This document shows positions 3,805 to 25,747 of a DNA stretch of 26,230 bases, in pieces; positions within the stretch are counted from its first letter, which is position 1; each line of letters opens with the position of its first letter. This DNA is from a virus. Made by a program: the position numbers and the translations under genes. The notes under the pieces were generated by a model, which ran no database searches, was not told where the DNA came from, and saw only the letters and a program-made list of their open reading frames with translations. The stretch spans positions 1-26,230 of the IMG/VR virus record IMGVR_UViG_3300028388_000635; one strand, written 5' to 3'.

Positions 3805-5406
3805 TTGGCAGAGCAGCCACCGTCACAGAGTGGGCCGGTCAACATGATGGTCGGTCGCAGTGATGAACGCACCCGCGCGAAGCCTGTTGACGAACTTGGT
3901 CTGTCCGGCCTCAACATCGTCACGGGCGAGGTGGACAACGAGTTCCTTCCCGCGCTGAAGGGCGTCAAGGCCACCAGGGTCTTCACGGAGATGGCCGACA
4001 ACGACCCCGTGGTTGGGGCCGTGCTCCACGCCATCGACATGATGTTGCGCGGTGTCGAGTGGTCCGTACAGCCTGCTGAGGAGGACAGCGAGGAGGCAGA
4101 GCGTGGCGCGGACTTCGTGCGTGAGTGCATGGAGGACATGGAGCACACCTGGGAGGAGTTCATCTCTGAGGTGCTGACGATGCTCCCGCACGGGTGGTCG
4201 TTCTTCGAGGTGGTCTACAAACTCCGCAACGGCGAAGAGGTGCAGGATTGGGAGCCCTCGATGATGCCGGGACAGACAGAGGGGCCACCCGCATCGACCT
4301 CCAAGCACAACGATGGACGCTACGGGTGGCGCAAGTTCGCCATCCGGTCGCAGGAGACCCGGCAGCGGTGGGAGGTGGACAGCAAGGGCAACATCCACGG
4401 GCTCTGGCAGCAGTCGCCGCCGACCTACGAGTTGACCTTCATCCCGATGGCGAAGAGCCTGCTCTTCCGCACCACGTCACGGAAGAACAACCCAGAGGGG
4501 CGCAGCGTCCTTCGGAACGCCTACCGGCCGTGGTACTTCAAGAAGCGAATCGAAGAAATCGAAGGCATCGGCATCGAGCGCGACCTGGCCGGGTTGCCCG
4601 TGGCCTACATCCCCGCCGAGTATCTGGCTGAGGATGCCAGCGACGAGGACAAGTACATCGCGCAGTTGTTCTACGACGCGGTGAAGAACGTCAGGCGGGA
4701 CTCTCAAGAGGGGCTTGTGCTGCCGATGCAGTACGACCCCGACACCGGGCAGCCGCTCTACCAGTTCACCCTGCTCTCGACGGGTGGGGCGCGGTCCTTC
4801 AACACCGACGCCATCATCCAGCGTTACGACCAGCGCATCGCGATGACCGTCCTGGCTGACATCATCCTCCTTGGGCACGACGCGGTGGGGAGTTACGCCC
4901 TCGCGACCTCGAAGGAGGGGATGCTGCGTGCGAGCCTGACCGCGTGGCTGGACCTCATCGCGGAGGTCTTGAACCGCTTCGAGTTGCCCCGGCTGTGGCG
5001 CATCAACGGGTTCGACCCTGACACGATGCCATCCTTCACGCACGGCGAGGTCGATTCCCCCACACCTTCGGAGTTGGCGCAGTTCATCCAGACCCTCGCC
5101 TCCACCGGGATGCCCTTCTTCCCGAATCAGGAGTTGGAGAACCACTTGCTGGAGGTCGCCAAGTTGCCCCAGCGCACGGAGGAGGAGTGGAACGCGCTCT
5201 ACGAGGCGCAGCAGGCTCAGCAGCAAGCGGGGCAGTTCGAGGGCGAAGAGGAGGAGGCCGAGACCACCGAGTTCGTCCCCGGCGAGGAGCCTGTCGCGGA
5301 GGAGGAAGAGGTCCCAGAGGAAGAGGCCGTTCCACCGCCGCGCTCACCACTGCCTCGTCCCGCGGATGAAGAGGGCGAGCGACCACGGAGGTCAGTCAGG
5401 CTATGA
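3805..5406 (+). CDS. Portal protein (DUF935/Mu gp29-like)
   Basis: The portal is the dodecameric DNA channel at the head vertex and the docking site for terminase and connectors. The 533-aa length is typical. It starts at TTG with a strong AGGAGG. Recognisable features are an N-terminal segment with DNDPVVGAVLHAIDMMLRGV (about residues 65-84), EVVYKLRNG in the clip/stem part, and the family-like NPEGRSVLRNAYRPWYFKKR (about 230-250) followed by helices predicted as the stem. The C-terminal 70 residues are strongly acidic, then Pro/Arg-rich, and likely disordered. The gene overlaps the next by 4 nt (ATGA). The family assignment to DUF935 rather than another portal family is from motif resemblance only. 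Confidence 0.88.
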   Translation: MAEQPPSQSGPVNMMVGRSDERTRAKPVDELGLSGLNIVTGEVDNEFLPALKGVKATRVFTEMADNDPVVGAVLHAIDMMLRGVEWSVQPAEEDSEEAERGADFVRECMEDMEHTWEEFISEVLTMLPHGWSFFEVVYKLRNGEEVQDWEPSMMPGQTEGPPASTSKHNDGRYGWRKFAIRSQETRQRWEVDSKGNIHGLWQQSPPTYELTFIPMAKSLLFRTTSRKNNPEGRSVLRNAYRPWYFKKRIEEIEGIGIERDLAGLPVAYIPAEYLAEDASDEDKYIAQLFYDAVKNVRRDSQEGLVLPMQYDPDTGQPLYQFTLLSTGGARSFNTDAIIQRYDQRIAMTVLADIILLGHDAVGSYALATSKEGMLRASLTAWLDLIAEVLNRFELPRLWRINGFDPDTMPSFTHGEVDSPTPSELAQFIQTLASTGMPFFPNQELENHLLEVAKLPQRTEEEWNALYEAQQAQQQAGQFEGEEEEAETTEFVPGEEPVAEEEEVPEEEAVPPPRSPLPRPADEEGERPRRSVRL

Positions 5407-7928
5407 GTTCCGACGCTCCGCTCTTCGAGTGGTCCACGATGGAACTCGCGATGTACGCAGACGACCCCGTGGACCCTGATGTTGCTGTGCTCGTAGGGCG
5501 GGAACTGAGCCGTCGCGAGCGCAACCGTGTCGCTAAGCGCGCGGGGAGGCCAACGACCCCACCGCCAGAGGAGATGCGGGTTCCTGTCTCCAAGGCGGTG
5601 CGCGAGTTCCGTGAGGAGGACGTGAAACGGGACGCCTCTGGCCGCTTCAGCAAGACGCGCGGGGCCAAGCGACCCAAGCCACCCATCAACCCCACGTCTG
5701 ACCCGAACCTGTGGAGCATCGGCTACGAGTCCTCGTCTGGTCGTCACGTCATCCGCGCTGGTGACACCGGGGACATCGTCACCTACGTCGAGTCACAGGA
5801 TGGCTCGCCAGAGAAGGCCATCGCGTATCGCCGTAGAGCCCGCGAGGAGTGGGGAGGAGCGCCAGCACGCCCCAAGCCCCCAGCGACGCTCACAGAGGCA
5901 CAGGAGCCTTCCACGGACGACTTCATGGCGGCGCTTGGTCATAGTCCCGAAGCCACCACCCCAGCCGCGTCAGATGACGCGCTCGACAAGACCGCGCCAG
6001 AGAACCCAGGCATCGTGCTCAGCGCGAAGGATGTCAAGGGCGTCCCGGTGATGTTCGGCTCCACGGAGCGGTCGTGGGGCTCGAAGTGGAGCGGGAGGAC
6101 CTCCTTCGCTCTCGGCATGGCCTATGGCCTTGAACTGCCTGCTCCTGCATCACGTCTGGAGAAGCAAGAGCGCGACGGATACACCGATGTCTTCGTGACC
6201 GATGACGGCGAAGAGATGTTGATTGCTCGCTTCGCTACCGATGAGCAGGCGTGGTACTTCATCAACGGTGCAGAGTCATCCAGCCAGAACAATGCCATCG
6301 CGTACCAGGGCTACAAGGACTGGACCGTACAGCCCAACGAGGAGGGCGACGGCTATCAGATTGTCAACGGGAAGACAGGCGACCACATCTTCTACCCGGA
6401 GACCAAGGGAGAAGCGCGAGAGTTCTACAACTCGTTCCGCGATGCAAGCGCAGCGTTCAAGCAGCAGCGCGATGTCATTGACCCGCCGCCTGCTCCCGAA
6501 GATACGATTCCGCCATCGCCGCTGACCGCACAAGAGCACGAACTGAAGCGGCACGAGGCCAGAATCGAAGAGGCTGAAGACGCGAAGCGACAGGCCTTCG
6601 AGGCTCGTGACGCGCTCCGTCGCTCCATTCTTGACGGGACCTACGACGGCGAGCACGCCATCGAAGGCGGTGCTATCCCCGGCGAGCAGATGATGTTGCC
6701 TGGTTTCGATGCACCGGAGGACTTCGAGGAGTACCGCAAACTCGATGCGAAGGCGCGTGCGGCGGTCAACGAGGTAGAGCAGCGCAAAGCGAAGCAGCAG
6801 CGGCTACTCAACACCCTCAAGCGCCTGGAAGAAGACGAACTTGAGGACTTCGACCTCTCTGACCCGGAGAATGTAGAACTCTTCGCGGAGAAGTTGTTTG
6901 GGATGACCACCTCGACAGGGTTCATCATCTCTGTTAGCGGGGCATCTGCGACTGGCGGTGAAGAGGTCTCCGTGAGCGGCTACGTCCTCAAGCCAGGTTC
7001 ATACTCAGATGGGCAACTTGAGGAGATGACGCTTCCGCAACTTGAGACCCTTGCACGAGAGCGCGGCGCGACTGCTTATCCTGCAACCTCGAAGAAGGAG
7101 CGGAAGCGAGGTCTCGTCCGGGCTATCGCACAGAGCCAGAGAGTTGGGTCGTGGAACAGGACAATCTCACTCGAAGGTGATGGGGACTATCAGTACCCAG
7201 ATGGCGGGTTCGCGTACCACGACAGTTTCACGATTGACGGCGTGTATCAGGGCGAAGGCATCATGCAAGAGTGGTTCGACCAACTCTTCGACGGGTACCG
7301 ACGCCTTGGGCTCTCTCACGTGCGGGTTCACGCCAACATCACCGTCGGTGGATACGCCTGGGCCGCGAAGGGATTTGATTGGGAATACGCTCCTCAAGAG
7401 TTTCAGCCAGGTGAGTACGGAGTGCTTGGTGACGAGATGCGCTCTGCAATCGTGGATGTTGATGCCTATCTCTACGACAACTTCAAGCCTGACGAAGAGA
7501 CCGTCGAGTCCTACAGCGACTTCCTCAACCGCCACGACATCGACCCAGAGCCGTACGTGGTCGATGACGAGAACCCGACCCTTGAGGAGTTGCAAGAGGC
7601 GGTAGAGGCTCACGTCGCTCAGGCGGTGTACGAACTTGAGAACAACCCAGAGGACATCGAGTACAGCCTTTCCGATGACATGCTCGAAGTCGTCAATAGA
7701 GCCCTGGGGCAGACGCAGTTCTTGAGTAGTCCTTCGCCGTGGTCGCTGGAACTCATCAGAGAGGTCAACGAACTCCACAGTTCTGTTGAGTACGGCGAAC
7801 TCACCGCCTGGGAAGCCTCACAGTGGCTCAACGAGAGCAAGTACCGCTGGACGGAGGGCAAGCACACGCTCTGGCCGGGGAAGTACCTGCTGCTGGGCTC
7901 TGACTGGAACGGATACCTCTACCTATGA
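5403..7928 (+). CDS. Large putative capsid-internal protein with SAP-like and GNAT-like domains
   Basis: An 841-aa protein overlapping the portal stop by 4 nt. Visible parts: an Arg-rich N-terminus with the tag VKRDASGRFSK (about residues 74-84); three degenerate beta-hairpin/helix repeats (starting near 102, 255 and 300; compare GDTGDIVTYVES with GKTGDHIFYPET); a charged coiled-coil stretch (about 375-495); a SAP/Rho-N-like helical motif MTLPQLETLARERG...SKKERKRGLVRAI (about 534-580); and a GNAT-like core (about 585-665) with QGEGIM (Q616), close to acetyl-CoA motif A (Q/R-x-x-G-x-G/A), then VHANITVGGYAWAAKGFDW. The rest is helical and acidic. Its position between portal and gpF-like protein suggests a head-associated or packaged protein. 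The GNAT assignment is moderate; the last motif residue is Met rather than Gly/Ala, so activity is uncertain. Confidence 0.6.
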   Translation: MSSDAPLFEWSTMELAMYADDPVDPDVAVLVGRELSRRERNRVAKRAGRPTTPPPEEMRVPVSKAVREFREEDVKRDASGRFSKTRGAKRPKPPINPTSDPNLWSIGYESSSGRHVIRAGDTGDIVTYVESQDGSPEKAIAYRRRAREEWGGAPARPKPPATLTEAQEPSTDDFMAALGHSPEATTPAASDDALDKTAPENPGIVLSAKDVKGVPVMFGSTERSWGSKWSGRTSFALGMAYGLELPAPASRLEKQERDGYTDVFVTDDGEEMLIARFATDEQAWYFINGAESSSQNNAIAYQGYKDWTVQPNEEGDGYQIVNGKTGDHIFYPETKGEAREFYNSFRDASAAFKQQRDVIDPPPAPEDTIPPSPLTAQEHELKRHEARIEEAEDAKRQAFEARDALRRSILDGTYDGEHAIEGGAIPGEQMMLPGFDAPEDFEEYRKLDAKARAAVNEVEQRKAKQQRLLNTLKRLEEDELEDFDLSDPENVELFAEKLFGMTTSTGFIISVSGASATGGEEVSVSGYVLKPGSYSDGQLEEMTLPQLETLARERGATAYPATSKKERKRGLVRAIAQSQRVGSWNRTISLEGDGDYQYPDGGFAYHDSFTIDGVYQGEGIMQEWFDQLFDGYRRLGLSHVRVHANITVGGYAWAAKGFDWEYAPQEFQPGEYGVLGDEMRSAIVDVDAYLYDNFKPDEETVESYSDFLNRHDIDPEPYVVDDENPTLEELQEAVEAHVAQAVYELENNPEDIEYSLSDDMLEVVNRALGQTQFLSSPSPWSLELIREVNELHSSVEYGELTAWEASQWLNESKYRWTEGKHTLWPGKYLLLGSDWNGYLYL

Positions 7929-8170
7929 GCGATGACCAGAAGCGACGAACGCAGCAAGCCATCTGGGAGGCCCAGAGGGAGTGGCTGAGCGCGAGCAGGA
8001 TGCGGGACATGTCTGACCGCATCACGGCGACGGCTACGGACCACGCTCTTCATGCCTCGGCCCTTGGTGAGAGTGAAGAGGACATCGAGCAGTACCACAG
8101 GATGCTTGAGCAGCGTGGCATCGTGGTGCCTACGCGGGTACGACGGCGGCGACGGGAGAACGAAGAGTGA
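7925..8170 (+). CDS. Small charged helical protein, unknown function
   Basis: An 81-aa protein overlapping both neighbours by 4 nt (ATGA before it, GTGA after it), so it is almost certainly translated with the two large accessory proteins. It looks mostly alpha-helical (SDDQKRRTQQAIWEAQREWL at the N-terminus) and ends in a basic cluster, RVRRRRRENEE. The basic tail could contact DNA or an acidic partner, but no family is recognised. The tight coupling argues for a function linked to the adjacent cargo-like proteins, perhaps as chaperone or adaptor; that is inference. Confidence 0.65.
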   Translation: MSDDQKRRTQQAIWEAQREWLSASRMRDMSDRITATATDHALHASALGESEEDIEQYHRMLEQRGIVVPTRVRRRRRENEE

Positions 8171-11148
8171 AGCGTCCAGAGCGTCCCTGGGAAGAGCACG
8201 AAGTCAAGCGTGACGCCTCTGGGCGCTTCGCGCGTGTCGATGAAGCGCGCCGTCCGGGCGTTGATGAACCAGAGGTGAAGCCCAGGAGGGCAATGAGATA
8301 CCCAGAGTTCGTGGATTCCTTCAAGGGCATCTACCCGAACAGCCACTCGTTCCACAGCAACGTCGAGACGCTTGGCAAGAAGTTCCTCGCAGAACTTGAT
8401 GGTAAGCAGGTAGATGATGTCGAGATGTACGTCGAGATGGACGAGGGCTCTGTTGACTCACTGCCTGTTGTCACCATGTCAAGCGAGCATCGCGGTGTCC
8501 AACTCCGCATGACTTTCGATGTCTATGGCGAGGTCAAGGACTTGAGGCTCGGCAAGCCTGGAGACAACCTTGATTCGCTTGACTTCCCCAACCGGGTGAA
8601 ACAACTCCCGCCACGCTCAAACACGACTTTCGTCGGCGTTGCTGACATGCTGATGAACTACTCCGTCGTTGCTGCCGGGAAACTCTACGTTCCTGATGAA
8701 AGCTCTAGCCTCTTCATGGGAGCGCGTTACGAAGGTATCCCTGTACTGCCGAAGGGGACACCGAGCCTTGCACCACTCTCTGTGTTCGCTTACAGCAGAG
8801 AACATCTGAAGCAAGAACTGACTCGTGGAGTAAGCGAAGACGGTTCCTGGGATGTTGATACCAAGTTGCTCGACAGCAAGGTGCTGCGGTTCATTGACAA
8901 GCACGGCCGTCAACTCAACGACATGCCGCGCCATCCTGGGAACTTGATGTTGCCAGCAAAGGCTATGGGCGACCTACTGACGGCATTCATCGAATCCGCT
9001 TCTTCGCATGAGGGCTTCACTGGAGATGACGTCCAGAACTTCAAGCAGGCTCTAATACGAGCAGAACACGCACTGCATAGGGATTACAAGCGTGACGCTT
9101 CTGACATGCTCCAAGTGCTCTCCTCGTTCCTCGATGAAGCGCTTCCTACGTGGCAGGAGGTAGCAAGCAACGGCAACTACCACGGGACTATGAAGGAGAA
9201 CATGTGGCAATCGGCGAATCTCGTGGGGAACATGGTCGCCGTTGCCAAGTTCGGGAACCAGGCAATCGCTGAAACACTGCACGAGGTCAATCGAGACTAT
9301 GACGAGTTTAGGCACGGCGGGTTTGTAGGTCGCCGCCGCTCCGTCCTCGGTGTCGGGAAACTAGAAGACGCCTTCCAACTCGTCAAAGAGACTCTTCAGG
9401 AGATTGAACCGCTCGCGCAACATGAGAACTCCTCCCAAGAAATGAGGATGAACCGTCAAGGCCTGGAAGGTCTTGAGCAGAGGGTCTCGATGGCCCTTAG
9501 TCGCGCACAAGGCATCCTTGACACACTCAGTGCGAATGAGTACCTGGCCGAGTACATCGACAACGAGGACCAACCATACGCTTCGCGAATACCGCTGCGT
9601 GTAGAGCAGCAAGTCATCCAAGCGCGAATCAGCGTTGGCGTTGATGTAGACAGGATTGAGAGCGACGAAGATAAAGCGCGGTACTTGAAGACCTTCTTCA
9701 AGAAGGACGGAAAGTTCTCTCCTTCTGAAATCAGGAGTAACCGCCACCGGCTTGATTATCTTGTCGAGGCCATCGCAACCCTTGACGTTCTTCACACCTT
9801 GCAGGGCAACGTGAGGCTGTACGAAGACCCGAAGGCGGCTGATGAGCGCCTTGACAACATGCTCCGTAACTTCAGAGCGCCTTGGCTGACAGAAGAATCA
9901 GACCTGCACTTTGAGATTGAGACTGACCAGCGCAATGTCGGGCGTATCAAGTCAGATTACAAGCGCAGAATCCAAGACACCCTCACTGCGAGGTTGCTCG
10001 AAGTCGCCTCTGAAGACCAGGGTGTGCGTCAAGAAGTTGAAGCAGTTGTGAGCGCGGTATGGACAAACAGTGTGATGAAGACTGCCTGGGTCTCTGATGT
10101 TGGTTTCAAGAACGAAGGCCTTGAAGAGCGGGCAAGGATTCACTTCAGCGAGAATGGAATCCCAAGCCGCCTGGACGTGGCCGCTCTTGGCACTGATGAG
10201 AATGGCGCTTACAAAATCAGAGTCAAGTTCAAGGAGTTGTTCGGCGGCGACTACACCCTGACTTGGGAGATGATGCGTCAGTATGCTGCTGGCGTAAGAG
10301 ATGTTCCAGATGGCGAGTTCGTGGATTATCTCGATGAGACCCTTGATGAAGGGTGGCGCGACAGGTTCGATGAGGTCTTTGAGGATGCGTTCCAGTCAAC
10401 CACTTTCATGCGATGGGCCGATAGAAGCCCCGGCGAACGGATGAAGTTCAAGCCGGGTGATGAGCAGGGCACACAGAAGTGGAGAGCGCTCTATCGAGAA
10501 CTTGGACGAGAGACCATCGCAACGCGCCTCTGGATGAGCGACTTCATCGGAACATGGGCATCATCCTCTTCGGATGAAGAGCCCAGGTCACTTGCCGCGC
10601 AATGGGTCGCCAGCGAGATGTTCGGCGGCATGGAGGGACTAGACCTAGAGGCTTTCGTTCGGGGTGCGAGCGGGCGTGATTCAGCGATGGTCGTTCCTGA
10701 TACGGAGAGCATCATCCACAAGCAAGGCGGCATGATTGCTGCAACGCTGACCGCGATGCACCAGGGCACTCAAGAAGCGTTCGAGAGGCAAGGCATTACG
10801 CACGTCAAACTCTACCGGGGTATGAAGTTCGGCGGTGATGACTCTCTGCCAGCCTGGGTTGCCAGCACTCGCGAAGATGTGACCATCAACGAGAACAACG
10901 ATGATGGTCACTCGTTCGACACAGAGATGTTCTTGAACCCGCTCTCATCCTGGTCAACTGATGGAGAAATCGCGCACGACTTGTTCGCTCGCGGCAGCAA
11001 CATGGGAATCCTCTTGGCGGCTGAGTTCCCCGTTTCCCGCGTCATCGGAACCGCCCTCACAGGGTTCGGGTGCTTGGAGGAGAGCGAGATGGTGCTGATT
11101 GGCGGATGGAAGCGACCACTAGATGGAGCAGCCCGATGGACAAGGTGA
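8167..11148 (+). CDS. 993-aa virion-associated protein with C-terminal ADP-ribosyltransferase domain
   Basis: It starts at GTG, overlapping the previous stop (GTGA). The N-terminus carries EVKRDASGRFARVDEARRP (tag at residues 14-21), nearly the same as in the 841-aa protein. Residues about 40-800 are unfamiliar, largely helical and charged. The C-terminus fits the R-S-E class of ADP-ribosyltransferases, which move ADP-ribose from NAD+ to a protein: KLYRGM with R884, NPLSSWSTD with S928-S930 (926-932), and CLEESEMVLIGG with E972 and E974, an ExE pair typical of arginine-directed enzymes. The intervening AAEFPVSRVIGTALTGFG also fits. T4 Alt is a known virion-injected enzyme of this class. Codon use looks A/T-richer than that of the terminase or capsid genes. 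Catalysis and target are not shown; the N-terminal 800 residues may be structural. Confidence 0.75.
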   Translation: MKRPERPWEEHEVKRDASGRFARVDEARRPGVDEPEVKPRRAMRYPEFVDSFKGIYPNSHSFHSNVETLGKKFLAELDGKQVDDVEMYVEMDEGSVDSLPVVTMSSEHRGVQLRMTFDVYGEVKDLRLGKPGDNLDSLDFPNRVKQLPPRSNTTFVGVADMLMNYSVVAAGKLYVPDESSSLFMGARYEGIPVLPKGTPSLAPLSVFAYSREHLKQELTRGVSEDGSWDVDTKLLDSKVLRFIDKHGRQLNDMPRHPGNLMLPAKAMGDLLTAFIESASSHEGFTGDDVQNFKQALIRAEHALHRDYKRDASDMLQVLSSFLDEALPTWQEVASNGNYHGTMKENMWQSANLVGNMVAVAKFGNQAIAETLHEVNRDYDEFRHGGFVGRRRSVLGVGKLEDAFQLVKETLQEIEPLAQHENSSQEMRMNRQGLEGLEQRVSMALSRAQGILDTLSANEYLAEYIDNEDQPYASRIPLRVEQQVIQARISVGVDVDRIESDEDKARYLKTFFKKDGKFSPSEIRSNRHRLDYLVEAIATLDVLHTLQGNVRLYEDPKAADERLDNMLRNFRAPWLTEESDLHFEIETDQRNVGRIKSDYKRRIQDTLTARLLEVASEDQGVRQEVEAVVSAVWTNSVMKTAWVSDVGFKNEGLEERARIHFSENGIPSRLDVAALGTDENGAYKIRVKFKELFGGDYTLTWEMMRQYAAGVRDVPDGEFVDYLDETLDEGWRDRFDEVFEDAFQSTTFMRWADRSPGERMKFKPGDEQGTQKWRALYRELGRETIATRLWMSDFIGTWASSSSDEEPRSLAAQWVASEMFGGMEGLDLEAFVRGASGRDSAMVVPDTESIIHKQGGMIAATLTAMHQGTQEAFERQGITHVKLYRGMKFGGDDSLPAWVASTREDVTINENNDDGHSFDTEMFLNPLSSWSTDGEIAHDLFARGSNMGILLAAEFPVSRVIGTALTGFGCLEESEMVLIGGWKRPLDGAARWTR

Positions 11149-11546
11149 CAATCCGCCCAGATGAACTCCTGCACAACGCAGACTGGTCGAAGACCCGGTG
11201 GGACCTTCCCACCGACGCTAACGGGTTCCTCACATCGCTTGGCATCGACCCTGGCGACCCGATGAACTACGCGCGTCGAGCAGTGGCCGACTTCATGGAG
11301 AAGAAGCCGTCTGCGGAGTACATGCCTAACCAACTTCGCCAGGAACTCGCGGGCAAGGGTCTCCTCTTCGGTTATCGTTCGGAGCCGAACTACCGTGCAA
11401 CAGCGCATGGGGTCAATCACATCATCGTCGGGGCACTGCGTGTCAGGAAGAGCAACAAAGGGAAGGCGAGGTACTACATCATCAACAAGCAAGACCCCAT
11501 CGAAGGCATCCGTGTAGACCCCGACACCTTGGAGCCGCTGGAATGA
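11136..11546 (+). CDS. Small protein directly downstream of the ADP-ribosyltransferase, unknown function
   Basis: 136 aa if started at the ATG at 11136, which follows ggag at a good distance and overlaps the upstream gene by 13 nt. The frame is open from 11070, but that would need a 79-nt overlap. The sequence MDKVTIRPDELLHNADWSK is followed by a helical part and a C-terminal beta-rich segment (HIIVGALRVRK, RYYIINKQDPIEGIRV). No family is recognised. Tight overlap on both sides places it in the same translational unit as the transferase, so a partner, chaperone or protective protein is possible but unsupported by any motif. Confidence 0.65.
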   Translation: MDKVTIRPDELLHNADWSKTRWDLPTDANGFLTSLGIDPGDPMNYARRAVADFMEKKPSAEYMPNQLRQELAGKGLLFGYRSEPNYRATAHGVNHIIVGALRVRKSNKGKARYYIINKQDPIEGIRVDPDTLEPLE

Positions 11547-12061
11547 ACGTCCGCAAGCACTACGGCCCTGGCCCACACAAGAACGGCACCGAGCAGAGCA
11601 TCCACGGCAAGAAGGGCGGCGCGGGGCTCACCTACCAGATGATGAGCCAGGAGAAGGGGCAGCGCGGTTACAGTTACGACCGCAAGAACAACCGCTTTGC
11701 CTCAGAGGGATTCGCGCTCAGCGTCTTCCCGCAGTTCGAGTCCGTTGTGCCTGTTGACGCCGCGCTCAAGGAGGCCGTGGACGCTTACGTGGAAGAGCAC
11801 GTGGACAAGGTGCGGGAGGACGAGCGAATCTACTTCGGCGCATGGCTCAACGAAGAAGACGGTCGCGTGTACCTCGACCTGAGCATCGTGGTTGATGACC
11901 GCGATGAGGCAATCTCCCTCGCCCACGACTATCAGCAGGAGGGCATCTATGACCTCGCGGCCGGTGAGACCATCTACACCCGAGCCCGACCCAAGGACGA
12001 CGTTGCCAAGCGACTCTCCCGCCCCTCCCCGCCTGCGGCCCTTGACCGCGCTGCGACCTAA
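11543..12061 (+). CDS. Small head-associated protein with HYGPGPH...HG motif
   Basis: 172 aa, ATGA overlap with the preceding gene. The N-terminus KHYGPGPHKNGTEQSIHGKK resembles a short motif (HYGPGxHPxGxxQxxHG) that recurs near the N-terminus of proteins in the portal/minor-head region of actinophages. The C-terminal half, with VYLDLSIVVDDRDEAISLA and EGIYDLAAGETIYT (about residues 112-153), resembles a small alpha/beta domain seen in phage head-region multi-domain proteins. No catalytic residues are evident. The last about 20 residues are Pro/Ala/Arg-rich and look unlike folded protein; a neighbouring frame stays protein-like past the stop (see the 34-aa ORF). Confidence 0.65.
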   Translation: MNVRKHYGPGPHKNGTEQSIHGKKGGAGLTYQMMSQEKGQRGYSYDRKNNRFASEGFALSVFPQFESVVPVDAALKEAVDAYVEEHVDKVREDERIYFGAWLNEEDGRVYLDLSIVVDDRDEAISLAHDYQQEGIYDLAAGETIYTRARPKDDVAKRLSRPSPPAALDRAAT

Positions 12062-12146: not shown

Positions 12147-12999
12147 CCTGGCCTCGAAGAGCATCCAGCGCGCTCGTCAAGTAGCGGATGTCTCAGAGCC
12201 ATCACTGAAACACCTCTTGCTCGCGGTGTTCGATGACGTGGCTCGTGCCATCAGCCCAGGCGAGATTCGTGTCGCCATTCGGTCATCCAAGTTGGCGGAT
12301 GCGTTCGCAAAGACGAAGGGTCGGGAGATTGAAGGTCTCTTCGGAGCCCACTTCGCGAAGATTCGTGACTCCGTGGTGCGCCAGGTCATCCCCACGGCCT
12401 TCAACGCGGGACATAGACGGTCGCTCACGGTGGTCGATGCTGCCGCACAGTACGCGGAGCGATTCAGTGCCACGCACCTGACCGGCATCACACTGGAGAC
12501 TGAGGAGGCGGTGCGGCAAGTCATCGCCTATGGGATGCGGAACGGCAAGCCCATCAACTCCATCGCGCAAGACCTTCAGAGCCAGGTAGGCCTCACGAAG
12601 CGCCACCAACAAGCCGTCGTGAACCACCGCGACATGATGCTGCGCGAGGGGAACGTGCCACGCGGACAGGTCGAGGCGATGTCGCGTGCCTACGCGCAGC
12701 GCTTGAAGAGCCACCGCGCTCAGATGATTGCCCGGACAGAGGTGATGAACGCCCTCAACATCGGCCGCCTGACGGTGTGGAGTTCTGCCATCAACGACGG
12801 GACCATCCCCTCCACCGCTCGCAAGGTCTGGGTCACCGCAGACGATGAACGGACATGCCCTGCTTGCGCGCCCATGCACGGGGTCACGGTTCCCTTTGGT
12901 GAAGCCTTCGATGTCCCTTACCCCAAGGGCAAGGCAATGATGCTTCAGGCACCCCCACCGCATCCGCAGTGCCGCTGCATCGTGGACTTGGTGACGTAG
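12133..12999 (+). CDS. Minor head / head morphogenesis protein (Mu gpF-like)
   Basis: 288 aa from the ATG at 12133, preceded by gggag; an in-frame ATG at 12103 would add ten residues that look non-native. Phage Mu gpF and SPP1 gp7 relatives are minor head proteins bound to the portal. The C-terminus shows the classical pattern: RAQMIARTEVMNALNIGR, then WVTADDERTCPACAPMHG with C242, C245 and H249, then PPPHPQCRC with H277, C280 and C282, a likely metal-binding cluster. The first 200 residues are helical. Its usual place is directly after the portal; here 6.6 kb of accessory genes separate them. Confidence 0.9.
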   Translation: MSWRDLASKSIQRARQVADVSEPSLKHLLLAVFDDVARAISPGEIRVAIRSSKLADAFAKTKGREIEGLFGAHFAKIRDSVVRQVIPTAFNAGHRRSLTVVDAAAQYAERFSATHLTGITLETEEAVRQVIAYGMRNGKPINSIAQDLQSQVGLTKRHQQAVVNHRDMMLREGNVPRGQVEAMSRAYAQRLKSHRAQMIARTEVMNALNIGRLTVWSSAINDGTIPSTARKVWVTADDERTCPACAPMHGVTVPFGEAFDVPYPKGKAMMLQAPPPHPQCRCIVDLVT

Positions 13000-13030
13000 T
13001 TCGTCTTCCCGCGTATGGTTCGCACAGGCA

Positions 13031-13036
13031 GAGGAG
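13031..13036 (+). promoter_or_regulatory. Ribosome binding site GAGGAG fixing the start of the protease fusion
   Basis: GAGGAG lies 7 nt before the ATG at 13044 and inside the longer open frame that begins at 12969. It supports 13044 over the upstream ATG, which lies in the previous gene. Confidence 0.65.
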
Positions 13037-13043
13037 CGTGTTG

Positions 13044-14093
13044 ATGACTTCCCATGTTGCTCCCAAGAGCATCGGGACTGACCACCTTGGTCGTCCCATC
13101 TGGCGCGCGACCTCTGTGTTCTCGCATGGCCTGAGCACCTTCCCGAGCGGTGCTGATTCCAACGGTGACGAGCCCAAGAAGAAGACCGTTGCGCTTGCCG
13201 ACCTACGCCCAACGCAGCCGAAGTTGGAAGCAGCGAAGGTCAACTCGATGATGCAGGACAAGGACCCCGAGCCCATCCACGTCATCGAGAGCGACAAGGG
13301 GCCGCGCATCATGGACGGCCATCACCGTGCGGCAGCGGCCGTTCTACGCGGTGACGAGACCATCGAAGCGCTCTGTTGGAGGCCCACGAAGCAGGCGGTG
13401 AAGAAGATGGCGAGACCCCAGCGCCCCGAGTTCATGGACGTGGAACTTCAGTTCCCCATCTCGAAGCGGGACGAGGACAAGCGGCTCGTGTTCGGGTGGA
13501 TGTACCTGCCTACCGGCAAGGGTGGCGAGGTCATCGTGGACAAGCACGACGACTTCATCCTGCCGGAAGACCTCGAAGAGACCGCCTACAAGTACGTGGA
13601 CTCCTCGCGGGTTGGCGGCGTGATGCACCTCCGCGATAGTCACCTCGTGAAGAAGAGCGACAAGCCCGTACAGGTGATGTCGCTGGTCGAGTCGATGGTG
13701 TTCACCCCGGAGAAGTGCGAGGCGCTAGGCATCTCGAAGAGCGCGATTCCGAATGGTGCCTGGTGGGTTGGCTATCGTGTCAACAACGATGGCGTATGGA
13801 ACGCGGTCAAGCGCGACGAGTTGACCTCCTTCAGCGTGCATGGTCGCGCGAAGAGGACGCCTGTCTCGAAGTCCGAAGGGGGAGCGGTTACGCCTCCTAG
13901 CCCCGCTCCTCCTTCGGCTACCACTGCTCCACCCGCAGCACCGGAACAGAACGCCGCTGCTTCTCAGGTTGTGATGCAGCAGCCGCAGCAACGTGCCGGG
14001 AAGACCACTCGCACGAAGACCCGCAAGGTTCGCCCTACGAGGCCAAACAGCCTCGCAGATGCCATGAAGACGCTCTCAAGTGGGAAGGGTTGA
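13044..14093 (+). CDS. ParB/Srx-like domain fused to XkdF-like prohead protease
   Basis: 349 aa. Residues about 45-110 resemble the ParB/sulfiredoxin fold: TVALADLRPTQPKLEAAKV, then PIHVIES and IMDGHHRAAAAVLRGDE, with GHHR at 92-95. Residues about 131-276 match PBSX XkdF (S78-like prohead protease family): RLVFGWMYLP, EVIVDKHDDFILPEDLEETA, GVMH with H195, LVESMVFTPEKCEALGI with S217, GAWWVGYRV, VWNAVKRDELTSFSVHGRAKR. H195 and S217 are the natural catalytic candidates. The C-terminus is Pro/Ala/Gln-rich, then basic (KTTRTKTRKVRPTRP). The protease would cut scaffold and possibly packaged proteins during head maturation. The gene sits just before scaffold and capsid genes, as expected. Confidence 0.82.
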   Translation: MTSHVAPKSIGTDHLGRPIWRATSVFSHGLSTFPSGADSNGDEPKKKTVALADLRPTQPKLEAAKVNSMMQDKDPEPIHVIESDKGPRIMDGHHRAAAAVLRGDETIEALCWRPTKQAVKKMARPQRPEFMDVELQFPISKRDEDKRLVFGWMYLPTGKGGEVIVDKHDDFILPEDLEETAYKYVDSSRVGGVMHLRDSHLVKKSDKPVQVMSLVESMVFTPEKCEALGISKSAIPNGAWWVGYRVNNDGVWNAVKRDELTSFSVHGRAKRTPVSKSEGGAVTPPSPAPPSATTAPPAAPEQNAAASQVVMQQPQQRAGKTTRTKTRKVRPTRPNSLADAMKTLSSGKG

Positions 14094-20104: not shown

Positions 20105-20430
20105 GGCGTGACCCGCAGTTCGCGCTAGAGATGTCCTACTGCGCGCCTCTCGGCCTCGCACACAGCGAGTTCCTGAGTTGGCATCCCGACGACCAAGACA
20201 AGGCACTTGCATGGCACCTACAGCAGCGGCAGACATGCGGGCGATGCGGGACACACCCCGATGATTGGAAAGAGGTCCGCTTCCCCTACACGGCAGGCAT
20301 CGAAATCTGTCGTGGATGCGAGATGCTGGACTTCTTGCGAGATGATGATGATGCGAAGGGGCCTGGGAGAGCGCCTTCCTTGAAGCCATCGAACTCACTA
20401 CTCAAGGCGCGAGGACTGAGCAATGGCTGA
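19646..20430 (+). CDS. Tail assembly chaperone GT (-1 frameshift product)
   Basis: This is the join of 19646-20098 and 20098-20430, about 261 aa. The T frame is open from 20077 (after a TAG at 20074) and reads RLRRDPQFALEMSYCAPLGL directly after the shift, a natural continuation with no start codon before 20131. T carries FLSWHPDDQDKALAWHLQQR and a CGRCGTHPDDW ... CRGCEM pair of CxxC motifs, a likely zinc site common in actinophage T domains. In lambda-like phages a small fraction of ribosomes make GT, and the G:GT ratio is needed for tail assembly. The end overlaps the tape measure start by 8 nt. Confidence 0.88.
20092..20098 (+). promoter_or_regulatory. Programmed -1 frameshift slippery site GGGAAAC
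   Basis: The bases read G GGA AAC in the G frame, fitting X XXY YYZ; a -1 slip gives GGG AAA. The zero-frame stop follows one codon later. Lambda uses the closely similar GGGAAAG. I see no clear strong stem just downstream. Confidence 0.88.
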
Positions 20431-23400
20431 GGAAGAACTGAAGGTCAAAGTCACCGTCGTTACTGAGGGCGATGACCCTGCCGAGATTGCTCGCGGCGTA
20501 GACCAAATCTCGAAGTCTCAAGAGACCCTTCAGAAGACCCGTGCTCGTGGTCGTGGCGGCGAACGTGACGACATCGGACTCACGCGCTCTCGCGCGCAGT
20601 GGCTTCAGCAGGAGGCCAAGGCCGCAGAGCGCTCGATGCGAGCGGAGACCAGCCGACGTTCCGCCATCGAACACGACGATGGACCGCTGGAGAAGGCGCG
20701 AGAGCGGTCGCAAATCGACCGGATGTTCAAGAGCAGCCAGCCTGCGGTCCAGATGGCCCCAAGCCGTCGCAAACTCGATGTCTCTGCACAGACGATGCAA
20801 GAGGCAGAGCCGTTCTTTGCTGCGGTTCGTGCAGACGCGGGAAAGCCACAGCAAGGACAGGGACAGGGGCAGCGCCGCCTTGACGCGAGTGCGCCAACAC
20901 TCTCCTCACAAGACCCCTACTTCGCGTCTGTTCTTGGTCTTGGTGAGGGAGGAGACTACGAACTTGACTCCCTGCTAGATGAGTTCGCCGGTGCCATCAA
21001 CACGGTCTTCTCGGCAGAACTAGGTACAGAACTTGGGGGTCAAGTCACCGCAGGGTTCCTTGATGGAATCCATGAGTCTTTGTCGGACATGGACTCCTCG
21101 CAGAAGAAGAAGTTGCAAGAAGGCCTTGCGAGCGTCATCAAGGGCTCGCAGGGGGCAAACACCTCTGCGCTGAGTGACCTCATCGAAGAGTCGGTCGAGG
21201 GAGCAGACCTTGATGGCTTCCGTGACTTGCTCTCGCAGGTCACTGGTGATGAGCGCTCCGGGCTACGCGGCATCATCGCGGAACTTGGTGAGTCGATGCA
21301 AGCGGGCGCTGGTCGAGCCCGCTCTACCACCTTGCGCGGCGCTGCAATGCAGAGCGTCGTGCAGACAGGTGGCTCGATGCTTTCACGCGCCGCTGGGGGC
21401 GCTGGCATCGGCATGGGCACCATCGCTACCGGGGCGCTCATGGGCGTGGGCCTTGGGGCTGCGTTCGCCGCCGCACGCGGGATGATGGCGCTTGCCTCTT
21501 CCATCAACGAAGCAGGTAAGGCGGCAATCGAGAGTCAGCGACAGTTCGACCGCTTGACGGCGGGGATGGGTAACAGCGAGCGAGCCGCCTTCGCGAATGT
21601 CCTGGGAGAGATGGGTGGGACGCGCGCTGGTGCGTACCAGATGCTCACGTCAACCCAACTTGGGCTCCAGCAGAGCGCCGGGTTCGGGGCTTCAACAGCG
21701 GCAGGGTTCGCTACCCGAGCCGGTGAACTCTCTGCATCGCTCGCAGAAAGCCCGCGTATTACTTCTAGTGAGGCGCAGTCAGCAGCCTCTTCGTTTGCAC
21801 AGGGTGATTTCAGCGGGGTCCAATCTCTCGGCATTGACATCACTGAAGCAGAGATTCAGCAACGCGCCACAGAGCGTGGTTTCATCGGCCTGGTAAGTGC
21901 GTCTGACCGTCTTGCCATCGCCATGAACCTTGCCGCAGAGAAGGCGGAAGAGTACGCAGGAGGAGAGGGCGGGCAAGCAGGCGAGCGGGATACACCAGCC
22001 CGTGATGAGTTCTCTTCACGCTCTCGGCGTGGCCGCGAGATAATGGGTACCTGGGCAAGAGGCCTATGGGATAGTGTTTCTGAGGGTGCTTCTGCGCTGT
22101 TCTTGGACTTTATCGAAGGGGCTCAAGACGGCACGTTCTTCGGTACCGGCCCTGGTGGCAATACAAGATGGTCACAGCGCTCTGGCGGGCTTCTGTCAGG
22201 TGACATGAATGTTGCTGGGCCTTCTTCTATGCCTACTGTCTCGAACGGAACGATGCTCGGGAGCATCCTCGCTACGGAAGAAGGGCAAGAAAGAGCCGCT
22301 TCAGTCAACAGCAACCGCTACAGAGAAGGTCTTATCGGCCTGGGGATGGTTGACCCCACGAACCGGATTGCTGAACTTGAAGAACTCATTGCAAATACTG
22401 ATGTAGGAGAATACCCAGAGCGCGTCGCGCAGTACACCGCGATGCTGGAGCAGGCGTACCAGCAGCGCATCTCGATGGGCCAGCAGTACGCGATGGGTAT
22501 TCAGAACATCGAAATCGGTGCTGCGCGTAGTCGCGAGGACATCTGGCGTAGTCACGGTCACTCCATCGAGGACATGACCCGCTCGTTCAACCACAGCATC
22601 GAAGACCTGTACCGCAACCGTAACCGCTCCATCGAAGACCTCAACATCAACCTTGGTCGCCAGATGAGCGATGTCGCTCTTGGCTTCGAGCGCCAACTTG
22701 AGGACATGGAGTGGGCACTTCAGTCCTGGGCAAACACCTCTGAGCGGGTGTGGACGAAGTTCGGCCACAGTTCTCAGTACGTTGCATCGAACCTTGAGGA
22801 CCAGAACAGGCGCTTCAAGGACTGGATGGACAACCTCGCTGCTCTGCGGGACATGGGGCTTAGCGAAGACGCCATTCGCATCATGGGGCTCGATGACGTT
22901 CAGAACGAGAGCCAGGTTCGTGCTCTCGTCAACTCGATGGACGACGAGACTCTTGCGCGCATCAACTCGGAGATTGCACAGCGCGTAGAAATGAGCGAGC
23001 AGGCTGCGCCGAACGTCAACACCGCGCAACTTGAGCGTCAGCAAGAGCGCGCTACGGAGGACATCTACAGGTCATACTCCCGCTCGCTCGAAGACCTCAA
23101 CCGGAGCGTTGCTCGTTCGCAAGAAGACCTGGCAATCAACAACGAGCGCGCAATGACGGCGCTTGAAATCAGCACTGACCGCTCGCTCGCCGCTTTGAAC
23201 CTCAACACCTCTCGTCAGATGGCCGACCTTGTTCGCACCATCACAGGGGCGTTCTACGAGTCGAGTGACGTGGCTCTTGAGACCACGAGGAACATGTACA
23301 GAGACATCGACCGTGAGCATGTCAGCGGCATCAGAATGACCGTTGGCAGTTTCGAGAACCTGTTCGAGCAACTTGGCATCACCGGGAATGAGCAGGGCCT

Positions 23401-24511
23401 GAATGTTGCTCGCCAAGTCATCACCGGAACAGCAGAAGGGTTCTACGTCTTCGATGAAGTCCGCAACATGCTAACGGCTCAGCCTATGGCAAACGGCGGC
23501 ATCAACGAGAACCACGTCGCGCAGTTCGCTCCTGCCGGGGCTATGCGACTCTGGGCAGAGCCAGAGACCGGGGGAGAGGCCTACATCCCCCTCGCGACGA
23601 GCAAGCGTCAGCGGTCGCTCGCCATCTGGAAGGAGACAGGCAAGCGTCTTGGTGTCGAGCACATGGAGATGCTGGAACTTGCTGAAGGCGCGCTACTTCA
23701 CGAGAACCTGCAAGGGTTCCTCAGCAATCTGACGCAGTTCAGCGCCGCAGCCGTGCAGAAGCACATCGAGAAGACGGGCGGCATGGGTGTTGGCGGGAGC
23801 GCTGGAACCCCAGGTCGCTACCAGGCGATGTTCGAGGCGGTCAAGGCTCAGTTCCCCGACATCTCCCTCATCTCGGGCTTCCGTGAGAACGCCATCACTG
23901 CAACAGGCAACCGCTCGTACCACGGCATGGGTCGCGCCATCGACATCGACCCCCGGATGGATGTCTTCAACTGGCTCAAGGCCGTCTATGGCGCGAACAC
24001 GAAGGAACTCATCTTCTCTCCCGCCAACGAGCGCCAGGTGTGGAACGGTAACGAGCACATGTACACCGGCATCACCCGCGCCCAGCATTGGGACCACATC
24101 CATTGGGCTATGAAGAACGGTGGCCTGCTCAACGCCTTCAAGGAGGGCGGTATCGCCACGGAGCCAAGCCTCGGTCTCGTAGGTGAGGGTGGCAAGGAGG
24201 CGATGATTCCGCTCAACAGGAAGGGCGTGCAGGCGCTCTCTGACGCCATCAGCAACAGCGGGGTCAGTTTCTTCTCGCAGTCCAAGCGAGACCAAGCGAG
24301 CCTTGTTGCTGCACCGGGTCACACGCAGGCCGAACTTGCGAGCGCACTCAGCGCCGTCGCGGAGGCCATGCAAGTCCAAGCACTCAGCCAGACAGACACC
24401 GCCACATACGGTCCTATTCAGGTCGTCAGCAACGACCCCGCCGACATGGAGCGGAAGTTGAAGCAGCGCGCGGCCTACCGGCGCTTGACCAACCCAGCAT
24501 CGAGGGCATGA
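20423..24511 (+). CDS. Tape measure protein with M15-like peptidase domain
   Basis: 1362 aa; GAGG 8 nt before the ATG. Its length sets tail length, and it is released into the host envelope with the DNA. Regions: charged helical N-terminus; small-residue hydrophobic stretch (about 325-357, GIGMGTIATGALMGVGLGAA) likely to enter the membrane; two blocks of RS-x-EDL helical repeats (about 702-765 and 874-945); a module NGGI...GGEAYIPL (about 1026-1055); an M15-like metallopeptidase domain (about 1135-1235) with SYHGMGRAIDIDP (H1167, D1174) and HWDHIHW (H1222, D1224, H1225, H1227); and a second GGI...GGKEAMIPL module (about 1240-1265). The peptidase likely cuts cell-wall peptides during entry. 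By eye 22030-22410 is less GC-rich than the flanks. Confidence 0.93.
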   Translation: MAEEELKVKVTVVTEGDDPAEIARGVDQISKSQETLQKTRARGRGGERDDIGLTRSRAQWLQQEAKAAERSMRAETSRRSAIEHDDGPLEKARERSQIDRMFKSSQPAVQMAPSRRKLDVSAQTMQEAEPFFAAVRADAGKPQQGQGQGQRRLDASAPTLSSQDPYFASVLGLGEGGDYELDSLLDEFAGAINTVFSAELGTELGGQVTAGFLDGIHESLSDMDSSQKKKLQEGLASVIKGSQGANTSALSDLIEESVEGADLDGFRDLLSQVTGDERSGLRGIIAELGESMQAGAGRARSTTLRGAAMQSVVQTGGSMLSRAAGGAGIGMGTIATGALMGVGLGAAFAAARGMMALASSINEAGKAAIESQRQFDRLTAGMGNSERAAFANVLGEMGGTRAGAYQMLTSTQLGLQQSAGFGASTAAGFATRAGELSASLAESPRITSSEAQSAASSFAQGDFSGVQSLGIDITEAEIQQRATERGFIGLVSASDRLAIAMNLAAEKAEEYAGGEGGQAGERDTPARDEFSSRSRRGREIMGTWARGLWDSVSEGASALFLDFIEGAQDGTFFGTGPGGNTRWSQRSGGLLSGDMNVAGPSSMPTVSNGTMLGSILATEEGQERAASVNSNRYREGLIGLGMVDPTNRIAELEELIANTDVGEYPERVAQYTAMLEQAYQQRISMGQQYAMGIQNIEIGAARSREDIWRSHGHSIEDMTRSFNHSIEDLYRNRNRSIEDLNINLGRQMSDVALGFERQLEDMEWALQSWANTSERVWTKFGHSSQYVASNLEDQNRRFKDWMDNLAALRDMGLSEDAIRIMGLDDVQNESQVRALVNSMDDETLARINSEIAQRVEMSEQAAPNVNTAQLERQQERATEDIYRSYSRSLEDLNRSVARSQEDLAINNERAMTALEISTDRSLAALNLNTSRQMADLVRTITGAFYESSDVALETTRNMYRDIDREHVSGIRMTVGSFENLFEQLGITGNEQGLNVARQVITGTAEGFYVFDEVRNMLTAQPMANGGINENHVAQFAPAGAMRLWAEPETGGEAYIPLATSKRQRSLAIWKETGKRLGVEHMEMLELAEGALLHENLQGFLSNLTQFSAAAVQKHIEKTGGMGVGGSAGTPGRYQAMFEAVKAQFPDISLISGFRENAITATGNRSYHGMGRAIDIDPRMDVFNWLKAVYGANTKELIFSPANERQVWNGNEHMYTGITRAQHWDHIHWAMKNGGLLNAFKEGGIATEPSLGLVGEGGKEAMIPLNRKGVQALSDAISNSGVSFFSQSKRDQASLVAAPGHTQAELASALSAVAEAMQVQALSQTDTATYGPIQVVSNDPADMERKLKQRAAYRRLTNPASRA
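22520..22720 (+). repeat. RSxEDL helical repeats, block 1, in tape measure
   Basis: Encodes successive units such as RSREDIWRSHGHSIEDMTRS, NHSIEDLYRN and NRSIEDLNIN, spaced about 11 residues. Hendecad-like repeats form long helices in the tail lumen. Confidence 0.75.
23045..23260 (+). repeat. RSxEDL helical repeats, block 2, in tape measure
   Basis: A second block with ATEDIYRSYSRSLEDLNRSV, ARSQEDLAIN and TDRSLAALNLN, the same 11-residue spacing as block 1. About 110 non-repeat residues separate the blocks. Confidence 0.75.
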
Positions 24512-24956: not shown

Positions 24957-25367
24957 ATGGCGCTCTCAGTCGCTCATCAGAACAAGGTGCTGGACGCGCT
25001 CTTTGGGTCCGGCTCTCCTGCGACGTACTACTTGGGGTTGCTCCTCGCGAATCCGCTGCAAGAGGACGGGTCGCTCGTCAGTACGGAGCCAAGCGGCGGC
25101 AACTACGGAAGGGTCGCGGTCACCAACAACGCCACGAACTTTCCTGCTGCTACGTTGGGGAGCAAGCCGCTTGACATCACCGTGACGTGGCCGAACCCGA
25201 CATCAGATTGGGGAACCGTCCGCTACCTCGGCGTCTTCAGTGCAGCATCAGCAGGGGACTTACACGTCTACTCGCTCTTCGCCACACCACGACTTGTCTC
25301 CACGGGTCGAGCACCAGCAATCGCAGCAGGCGCAGCATCATTCAAGTACGGCTCGTTGGAGGGCTAA
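24957..25367 (+). CDS. Small tail protein A (paralogue of next gene)
   Basis: 136 aa from ATG 24957, 2 nt after the previous stop; the open frame extends upstream but the sequence there is a shadow. The pattern YYLGLLLANPLQEDG, PSGGNYGRVAVTNNATNF, TSDWGTVRYLGVFSAASAGD and PRLVSTGRAPAIAAGA fits a phage tail-fibre-like family in which a short beta-sandwich contains GGxYxR and WGTV/GIxDA elements. The next gene carries the same elements in the same order, suggesting tandem duplication. A ribosome binding site is weak; translation probably depends on coupling. Confidence 0.7.
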   Translation: MALSVAHQNKVLDALFGSGSPATYYLGLLLANPLQEDGSLVSTEPSGGNYGRVAVTNNATNFPAATLGSKPLDITVTWPNPTSDWGTVRYLGVFSAASAGDLHVYSLFATPRLVSTGRAPAIAAGAASFKYGSLEG

Positions 25368-25369
25368 CG

Positions 25370-25747
25370 ATGTCAAGTAGAACAGACTTCCTCGAAGACG
25401 CTTGGTTGAACCACGTCACCAACCAGGCAACCTACAGCCCGCCAGCGGGGCTGTACCTCGCACTCTTCACCGTTGCACCCACGGGAGCGGGTGGTGGCAC
25501 AGAGGTCACAGGAGGCTCCTACGCACGGCAACTCATCTCGTGGGGCGCGGTGGCTGGTTCCGTCGTGGAGAACAACACCACGCTGCTCTTCGATGGGATG
25601 CCTGCGGTGTCCGTTGTCGCCTCTGGCATCTATGACGCGCTGACGGCGGGGAATCTTCTCTACTACAAGCCGCTGACCACGACGCCAGTATCAGACGGCC
25701 AAGCCGTTGCGTTCTACGCAGGCACCGTCACCATCACGGCGGATTAG
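25370..25747 (+). CDS. Small tail protein B (paralogue of previous gene)
   Basis: 125 aa from ATG 25370, 2 nt after the previous stop, with ggaggg about 8 nt upstream. MSSRTDFLEDAWLNHVTNQA is followed by LYLALFTVAPTGAGGGTEVT, GGSYARQLISWGAVAG, SGIYDALTAGNLLYYKPL and AVAFYAGTVTITAD. This is the usual form of the family found next to phage tail-tip and fibre genes. Order of elements matches the previous gene at low identity. The likely role is in the tail tip or fibre base. Confidence 0.75.
   Translation: MSSRTDFLEDAWLNHVTNQATYSPPAGLYLALFTVAPTGAGGGTEVTGGSYARQLISWGAVAGSVVENNTTLLFDGMPAVSVVASGIYDALTAGNLLYYKPLTTTPVSDGQAVAFYAGTVTITAD

What the first reader, a model, noticed from the sequence alone, without database searches (positions are those of the whole stretch)
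5403..12061. 6.6-kb block of putative capsid-packaged effectors between portal and gpF-like gene
Portal and gpF-like minor head genes are normally adjacent. Here five overlapping genes separate them. Two are very large (841 and 993 aa), share an N-terminal tag and end in enzyme-like domains (GNAT-like, ADP-ribosyltransferase). By analogy with T4 Alt, these may be loaded into the head and injected to modify host proteins at the start of infection. Packaging and delivery are inferred from position and domains.
Basis: partly seen in the sequence, partly recalled or inferred. Interest (0 to 1): 0.8.

Follow-up and report, generated by a model that had tools for sequence, protein, structure and literature searches.

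The report
Unfused head-effector cassette, portal to MuF
Between two phage head genes sits a 6.7-kb cassette of five genes, two of which encode enzymes (an ADP-ribosyltransferase and an acetyltransferase) that related phages weld onto their MuF head protein, so the phage probably carries them in its head and injects them into the host.

Summary
Five genes fill the 6,697 bp between portal and MuF. In 45 of 55 portal-related loci with a detectable MuF the two genes touch or overlap, and this gap is the largest of the 55. The 993-aa protein ends in an R-S-E ADP-ribosyltransferase domain (ART; R884, S928, E972/E974) and the 841-aa protein in a GNAT fold; profiles and predicted structures agree. 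The decisive context is in relatives. The same ART and GNAT domains are fused to the MuF protein itself in contigs found only by portal similarity, and contig L014 encodes MuF-ART-partner-GNAT in one polypeptide. The window is thus the unfused form of a known strategy, head-carried injected effectors.

First, the 136-aa gene after the ART belongs to an unnamed small-protein family that follows or is fused to this ART (73 of 87 stretches; 0 of 117 GNAT domains), plausibly an immunity or inhibitor partner. Second, the shared VKRDASGRF peptide is one instance of a short tag that recurs in scaffolding, portal, MuF and effector proteins of unrelated phages. I found it in none of the papers searched. 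It is a candidate loading signal or processing site.

Packaging, injection, enzymatic activity and tag function are not shown.

The parts
3805..5406 (+). portal protein (upstream border)
   Evidence: PF06074 6.5e-32, phrog_113 1.2e-87
5403..7928 (+). 841-aa protein: tag, long unassigned region, C-terminal GNAT domain
5622..5648 (+). tag VKRDASGRF in the 841-aa protein
7128..7385 (+). GNAT core, residues 576-661 (VHA-N-I-T-V-GGY-A-WA-x-x-GF)
   Evidence: leave-out profile 85 bits over residues 576-839; VIA-align rows all GNAT or GNAT-containing, best Z 11.1
7878..7925 (+). C-terminal GK-LLLGSDW strand that seems to complete the GNAT fold after a mostly helical insertion
   Evidence: family consensus, model and alignments reaching residue 295 of the model
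7925..8170 (+). 81-aa protein of unknown role
   Evidence: no relatives found
8167..11148 (+). 993-aa protein: tag, about 760 aa unassigned, C-terminal ART
8203..8229 (+). tag VKRDASGRF in the 993-aa protein
10531..11106 (+). ART domain, residues 789-980; R884, S928, E972, E974 conserved
   Evidence: leave-out profile 155 bits; model pLDDT 86, pTM 0.81; VIA rows dominated by ART folds
11136..11546 (+). 136-aa ART partner (family NADW-x-K-xx-WDLP), candidate immunity or inhibitor
11543..12061 (+). 172-aa protein: variant type-2 tag plus a module shared with GNAT effector proteins and phrog_3170
11555..11620 (+). variant type-2 tag KHYGPGPHKNGTEQSIHGKKGG
   Evidence: sequence compared with KH..HDQ[KS][ST]HG tags; by eye, not scored
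12103..12999 (+). MuF/gpF-like minor head protein, short form (298 aa)
   Evidence: PF04233 1.1e-14, phrog_3517 7e-38
12969..14093 (+). XkdF-like head maturation protease with ParB-like N-terminal region
   Evidence: PF14550 1.2e-19; phrog_1033 5.4e-5

Best explanation
The block is a head-carried effector cassette. The late head operon makes an ART protein, a GNAT protein and accessory proteins together with portal, MuF and protease; short tags in the effectors take them into the procapsid; they leave with the DNA and modify host proteins early in infection. The small gene after the ART restrains the ART while it is made. In relatives the same modules are fused to MuF; here they are separate genes ahead of a short MuF. 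Shown: gene order, folds, catalytic residues, fusions in relatives, ART-partner linkage, tag enrichment. Inferred: packaging, injection, activity, targets, partner role, tag role.
For: Contigs found only by portal similarity carry the same ART fused to MuF (L004, L008, L014, L023, L033, L035, L043, L064) and the same GNAT fused to MuF (L014, L030-L032); L014 reads MuF-ART-partner-GNAT in one ORF. ART: leave-out profile 155 bits, R884, S928, E972 and E974 conserved, model pLDDT 86, the 50 VIA rows dominated by ART-fold proteins with best Z 7.0. GNAT: leave-out profile 85 bits, all VIA rows GNAT or GNAT-containing with best Z 11.1; same domain on the MuF protein of phage Jera, directly after its portal. 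Partner linkage: 73/87 stretches within 500 nt after an ART domain, 20 fused, 0/117 after GNAT domains. Tag: RDxxGRF-type motif in 16/69 GNAT and 7/55 ART proteins against 3/734 other ORFs of the same loci; proteins picked by the tag alone match scaffolding, portal, MuF, ART, Zeta-toxin and DarB-like families; first tag within 100 aa of the N-terminus in 38/51 complete ORFs. Published context: phage ARTs and MuF fusions near head genes are predicted to be head-packaged (PMC9503650; PMC5512222; PMC5576092).
Against: No proteomics and no activity data. Most of both large proteins (about 550 and 760 aa) has no assignment. Z for the ART model is moderate (best 7.0) and Foldseek alone gave no E below 0.001. 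The phage P1 DarB capsid signal lacks the tag. Some tagged proteins match non-head families (for example endolysin). Partner homologues without a detected ART occur in three of five bacterial genome hits.
Confidence: 0.7

Rival explanations
1. The proteins are enzymes that act in the producing cell late in infection (or in a lysogen), encoded among head genes but not packaged.
For: Position alone does not show packaging; an ART with an immunity-like partner fits action in the producing cell; the ART gene has lower GC (0.553, against about 0.60-0.65 in most other genes), so it may be a recent acquisition.
Against: The same domains are fused to MuF in portal relatives, the tags recur on head proteins, and the genes are interlocked with portal by stop-start overlaps.
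Confidence: 0.15
2. They are structural internal head proteins (ejection, scaffold or core proteins) whose ART and GNAT domains are degenerate and serve assembly.
For: Large unassigned regions; tags shared with scaffolding and portal proteins.
Against: R884, S928, E972 and E974 are kept, the GNAT signature residues are kept, and the ART has a linked partner.
Confidence: 0.1
3. About the tag only (compatible with the best explanation): the tag is not a loading signal but a cleavage site of the head maturation protease, which would also separate modules of long fused proteins.
For: The tag recurs at several places in one protein, before separate modules (for example L181, L114, L127, L101), often followed by glycine-rich linkers, and is on scaffolding, portal and protease-type proteins.
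Against: No cleavage data; in many proteins it lies within 25 residues of the N-terminus, where cleavage would remove little.
Confidence: 0.3
4. Assembly chimera: the five genes were joined to the head genes by mis-assembly.
For: The closest relative, L002 (84% identical DNA over 3.0 kb), ends at the portal gene, so no independent contig spans the junction; the GC dip.
Against: Exact stop-start overlaps at the junctions; relatives carry the same modules next to or fused with MuF.
Confidence: 0.04

Closest known systems
MuF polymorphic toxins (Jamet et al. 2017, PMC5576092)
   Same: Effector domains, ART among them, tied to the MuF head protein downstream of portal; a small ORF directly downstream proposed as immunity.
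   Different: Here MuF is a short separate gene and the effectors are separate genes ahead of it; tags, not a MuF domain, are the common feature.
Polyvalent proteins of phages (Iyer et al. 2017, PMC5512222)
   Same: Large late-operon proteins with ART and GNAT domains predicted to be packaged and injected.
   Different: One recognised enzyme domain per protein here; ART is R-S-E type, whereas those authors give H-Y-D for polyvalent ARTs.
Head-associated Alt/VIP2 and N4-ART proteins (Iyer et al. 2022, PMC9503650)
   Same: ARTs encoded near terminase, portal and capsid genes or fused to MuF.
   Different: Unfused here, paired with a GNAT gene, a partner gene and tags.
T4 Alt
   Same: R-S-E ART; Alt is packaged and injected (cited in PMC5512222).
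   Different: Near baseplate genes in T4; no homology test to Alt was made here; packaging unproven.
P1 DarB
   Same: Head-loaded injected protein with an N-terminal signal (first 30 aa suffice, PMC9024508); a DarB-like protein in L347 carries the tag.
   Different: P1 DarB itself lacks the tag.
Microbacterium phage Jera gp5
   Same: MuF-type head protein with the same GNAT domain, directly after portal.
   Different: Fused; no ART match was found there.

Membership tests
R-S-E ADP-ribosyltransferases | R on strand 1, S-T-S-like serine, E-x-E glutamates | tested here: met
   R884 100%, S928 91%, E972 and E974 100% in 55 relatives; E positions were in the search motif, R and S were not
R-S-E ADP-ribosyltransferases | ART fold | tested here: met
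   model pLDDT 86; VIA rows dominated by ART folds, best Z 7.0, rmsd 2.5 over 87 residues
R-S-E ADP-ribosyltransferases | NAD-dependent transferase activity | not testable with these tools
   needs protein
GNAT acetyltransferases | GNAT fold | tested here: met
   all 50 VIA rows GNAT or GNAT-containing, Z 9.2-11.1; model confidence 69 overall, about 78-92 per ten-residue block in the core
GNAT acetyltransferases | acetyl-CoA binding and activity | not testable with these tools
   needs protein
MuF polymorphic toxins | effector domain fused to a MuF domain | tested here: not met
   MuF is a separate 298-aa gene; no MuF domain in the two large proteins
MuF polymorphic toxins | small ORF directly downstream of the effector | tested here: met
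   136-aa gene overlaps the ART gene by 13 bp and is a conserved ART neighbour
Polyvalent proteins | two or more effector domains in one polypeptide | tested here: inconclusive
   one enzyme domain recognised in each; long regions unassigned
Polyvalent proteins | H-Y-D type ART | tested here: not met
   R-S-E instead (definition)
T4 Alt | packaged in the head and injected | not testable with these tools
   needs virion proteomics
T4 Alt | sequence homology to Alt beyond the ART signature | not tested
   no Alt sequence compared
P1 DarB-type capsid signal | same N-terminal signal | tested here: not met
   first 100 aa of P1 DarB have no RDxxGRF-type tag

The most novel reading that the evidence does not exclude
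The 7- to 20-residue tags (RDxxG[RK][FW], KH..HDQ[KS][ST]HG, HPFxGNQ[YW]) are portable signals, shared by scaffolding, portal, MuF and effector proteins of unrelated phages, that decide what is loaded into (or processed inside) a phage head; the 'NADWxK..WDLP' family is a dedicated immunity family for head-carried ARTs.
Probability: 0.35. Interest if true: 0.85.

Novelty: new variant of a known kind. Interest (0 to 1): 0.6.

Why it matters
How phages choose which proteins to load into the head is known for a few model phages (T4, P1). If the tags are loading signals, one could predict injected effectors in genomes by a short motif and test loading by fusing a tag to a reporter. The ART-partner pair is also a concrete toxin-immunity candidate to assay.

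Tried and rejected
Pfam, PHROGs and NCBIfam give no significant match for the two large proteins as a whole. Searches with whole proteins or single domains as exact peptide seeds found no relatives; degenerate motif scans did. The two domain queries against solved-structure sequences gave nothing useful. Nucleotide search of phages: no match. Idea that the tag equals the P1 DarB signal: rejected. Idea that the tag is a recent duplication within the window: unlikely, since all four differences are synonymous and the flanks are unrelated. A reversed-pattern control for the tag gave 11 matches against at least 120; it is not matched for dinucleotides (it contains CCGCGG), so the ratio is only approximate. 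Searching phage records with 20-aa tag strings gave 14 records for type 1, all in genes of one kind annotated as head or capsid maturation protease (three of the entries still say hypothetical), and none for types 2 and 3; these E-values are 1-10, so it is weak evidence by itself. The protease annotation of that short basic Predator protein looks doubtful. The idea that the partner always accompanies an ART fails for three of five bacterial genome hits. The 81-aa gene remains without relatives. Text searches for literal tag strings found no paper; motif logos in figures would not be found this way.

Full report
What is there. The window is a 26,230-bp virus record from IMG/VR, linear and probably a fragment. 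The head operon runs TerL-like, portal, five extra genes, MuF, XkdF-like protease, scaffold-like genes, major head protein. The five extra genes fill 6,697 bp. They are linked by 4-bp stop-start overlaps, except 13 bp at the small gene and a 41-bp gap before MuF.

Is the gap unusual? I collected 80 viral loci by similarity to this portal alone and located MuF in 54 of them plus the window. In 45 of 55 the genes touch or overlap, 7 have 301-853 bp, one has 2,708 bp, this window has 6,697 bp, and in one MuF lies upstream. So adjacency is the rule in this portal group and the window is the extreme. It is not absolute: in mycobacteriophages Predator and Oaker several small genes lie between portal and MuF.

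The ART. No library model matched the 993-aa protein, but tblastn found SP15_258 of Bacillus phage SP-15 (E 6e-7). Their shared residues gave a degenerate motif that pulled a large family from viral contigs. A profile built without the window matches residues 789-980 at 155 bits; R884 (100%), S928 (91%), E972 and E974 (100%) are conserved. The glutamates were part of the search motif, so only R and S are independent. AlphaFold2 on the alignment gave pLDDT 86 and pTM 0.81. In the VIA-align second look the rows are dominated by ART folds (Rhs toxins, KptA, Vis, ExoS, C3, PARPs), with best Z 7.0. Z is moderate and Foldseek alone gave no E below 0.001, so the fold rests on profile, catalytic residues and the consistent hit list together.

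The GNAT. The 841-aa protein matches the C-terminal part of Microbacterium phage Jera gp5. Jera gp5 is a MuF-type head protein directly after portal. A motif scan gave 89 stretches. A profile built without the window matches residues 576-839 at 85 bits. All 50 VIA rows are GNAT or GNAT-containing proteins, with best Z 11.1. Alignments reach the last residues, so the conserved GK-LLLGSDW end seems to complete the fold after a mostly helical insertion; the insertion itself is modelled with low confidence.

The decisive context. In the contigs found only by portal similarity, the same ART lies inside the MuF protein in L004, L008, L014, L023 (twice), L033 (twice), L035, L043 and L064, and the same GNAT lies inside MuF in L014 and L030-L032 or in a nearby gene in L069, L080, L014 and L023. 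L014 encodes MuF-ART-partner-GNAT in one polypeptide. The window has the same modules as separate genes in front of a short MuF. This is the best argument that they belong to the head.

The partner. The 136-aa gene has no library match. A profile search shows a small family with the core D..xxNADWxKxxWDLP...F..LPxY. Of 87 stretches, 73 begin within 500 nt after an ART domain and 20 of these are fused to it. Most of the remainder lie beside ART-bearing ORFs at greater distance. 70 of 141 ART domains have it, and 0 of 117 GNAT domains do. In SP-15 it is the gene just upstream of the ART. The contigs were largely collected by ART, so the direction 'partner implies ART' is biased. A separate scan of bacterial genomes by the partner motif gave five loci, two with the ART and three without. 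Small ORFs after MuF toxins have been proposed as immunity genes (PMC5576092). I therefore favour an inhibitor or immunity role, at about even odds.

The tag. Both large proteins carry VKRDASGRF, encoded with four synonymous differences in 27 bases. RDxxGRF-type motifs occur in 16 of 69 GNAT and 7 of 55 ART proteins against 3 of 734 other ORFs of the same loci, with a shuffled expectation below one per set. Two other short motifs behave alike: KH..HDQ[KS][ST]HG, of which the 172-aa gene carries a variant, and HPFxGNQ[YW]. A scan by PRDxxGRF alone stopped at 120 stretches against 11 for the reversed pattern. Proteins picked this way match head scaffolding, portal, MuF, minor head, ART, Zeta-toxin and DarB-like families. 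The first tag is within 100 residues of the N-terminus in 38 of 51 complete ORFs. In Nocardia phage P3.1 three consecutive genes in the portal-to-capsid interval begin with it (KRDGKGRFAK, KRDGRGRFAK, PRDLRGRWKS). In several proteins it recurs before successive modules. A loading signal and a head-protease site both fit. The P1 DarB signal lacks it. I found no paper that prints these strings.

The other two genes. The 172-aa protein shares its module with phrog_3170 and with the region after the type-2 tag in GNAT proteins L087, L132, L140 and L141. The 81-aa protein has no relatives found.

Origin. The ART gene has lower GC (0.553; GC3 0.641) than most of its neighbours (about 0.60-0.65), consistent with acquisition.

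What is known. Head-carried ARTs, MuF-fused toxins and polyvalent proteins are described (PMC5512222, PMC5576092, PMC9503650). The window fits none of these definitions exactly: MuF is not fused, the ART is R-S-E rather than H-Y-D, and each large protein has one recognised enzyme domain. I call it a new variant of a known kind. Packaging, injection, activity, targets, and the roles of partner and tag are inferred.

Noticed in passing
12969-14093: The XkdF-like head protease has an N-terminal region resembling ParB-like proteins (phrog_1033, 5.4e-5), another possible effector-type domain on a head protein.
   Followed up: no
L429:6246-7699 (Nocardia phage P3.1): Three consecutive genes in the portal-to-capsid interval start with the tag (two KRDxxGRF, one PRDxxGRW).
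   Followed up: partly
L014:7778-12418: One ORF encodes MuF, ART, ART partner and GNAT in a row.
   Followed up: partly
L181, L178: Repeated tag-ART units: tags at three places in one ART protein (L181), and two adjacent tag-ART genes (L178).
   Followed up: no
L431, L432, L434 (bacterial genomes): ART-partner homologues with no ART detected nearby, possibly orphan immunity genes.
   Followed up: partly
8167-11148: GC 0.553 and GC3 0.641, lower than neighbouring genes.
   Followed up: partly
25187-25747: A phrog_240 'head protein' match lies downstream of the 1,362-aa gene at 20423-24511, far from the other head genes.
   Followed up: no
400-2289: Two genes upstream of the terminase match PHROGs of unknown function (phrog_2295/phrog_5313 and phrog_18593).
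   Followed up: no
L208, L240, L241, L187: This ART sits inside proteins of 3,000-3,500 aa with the partner gene just after the giant ORF.
   Followed up: no
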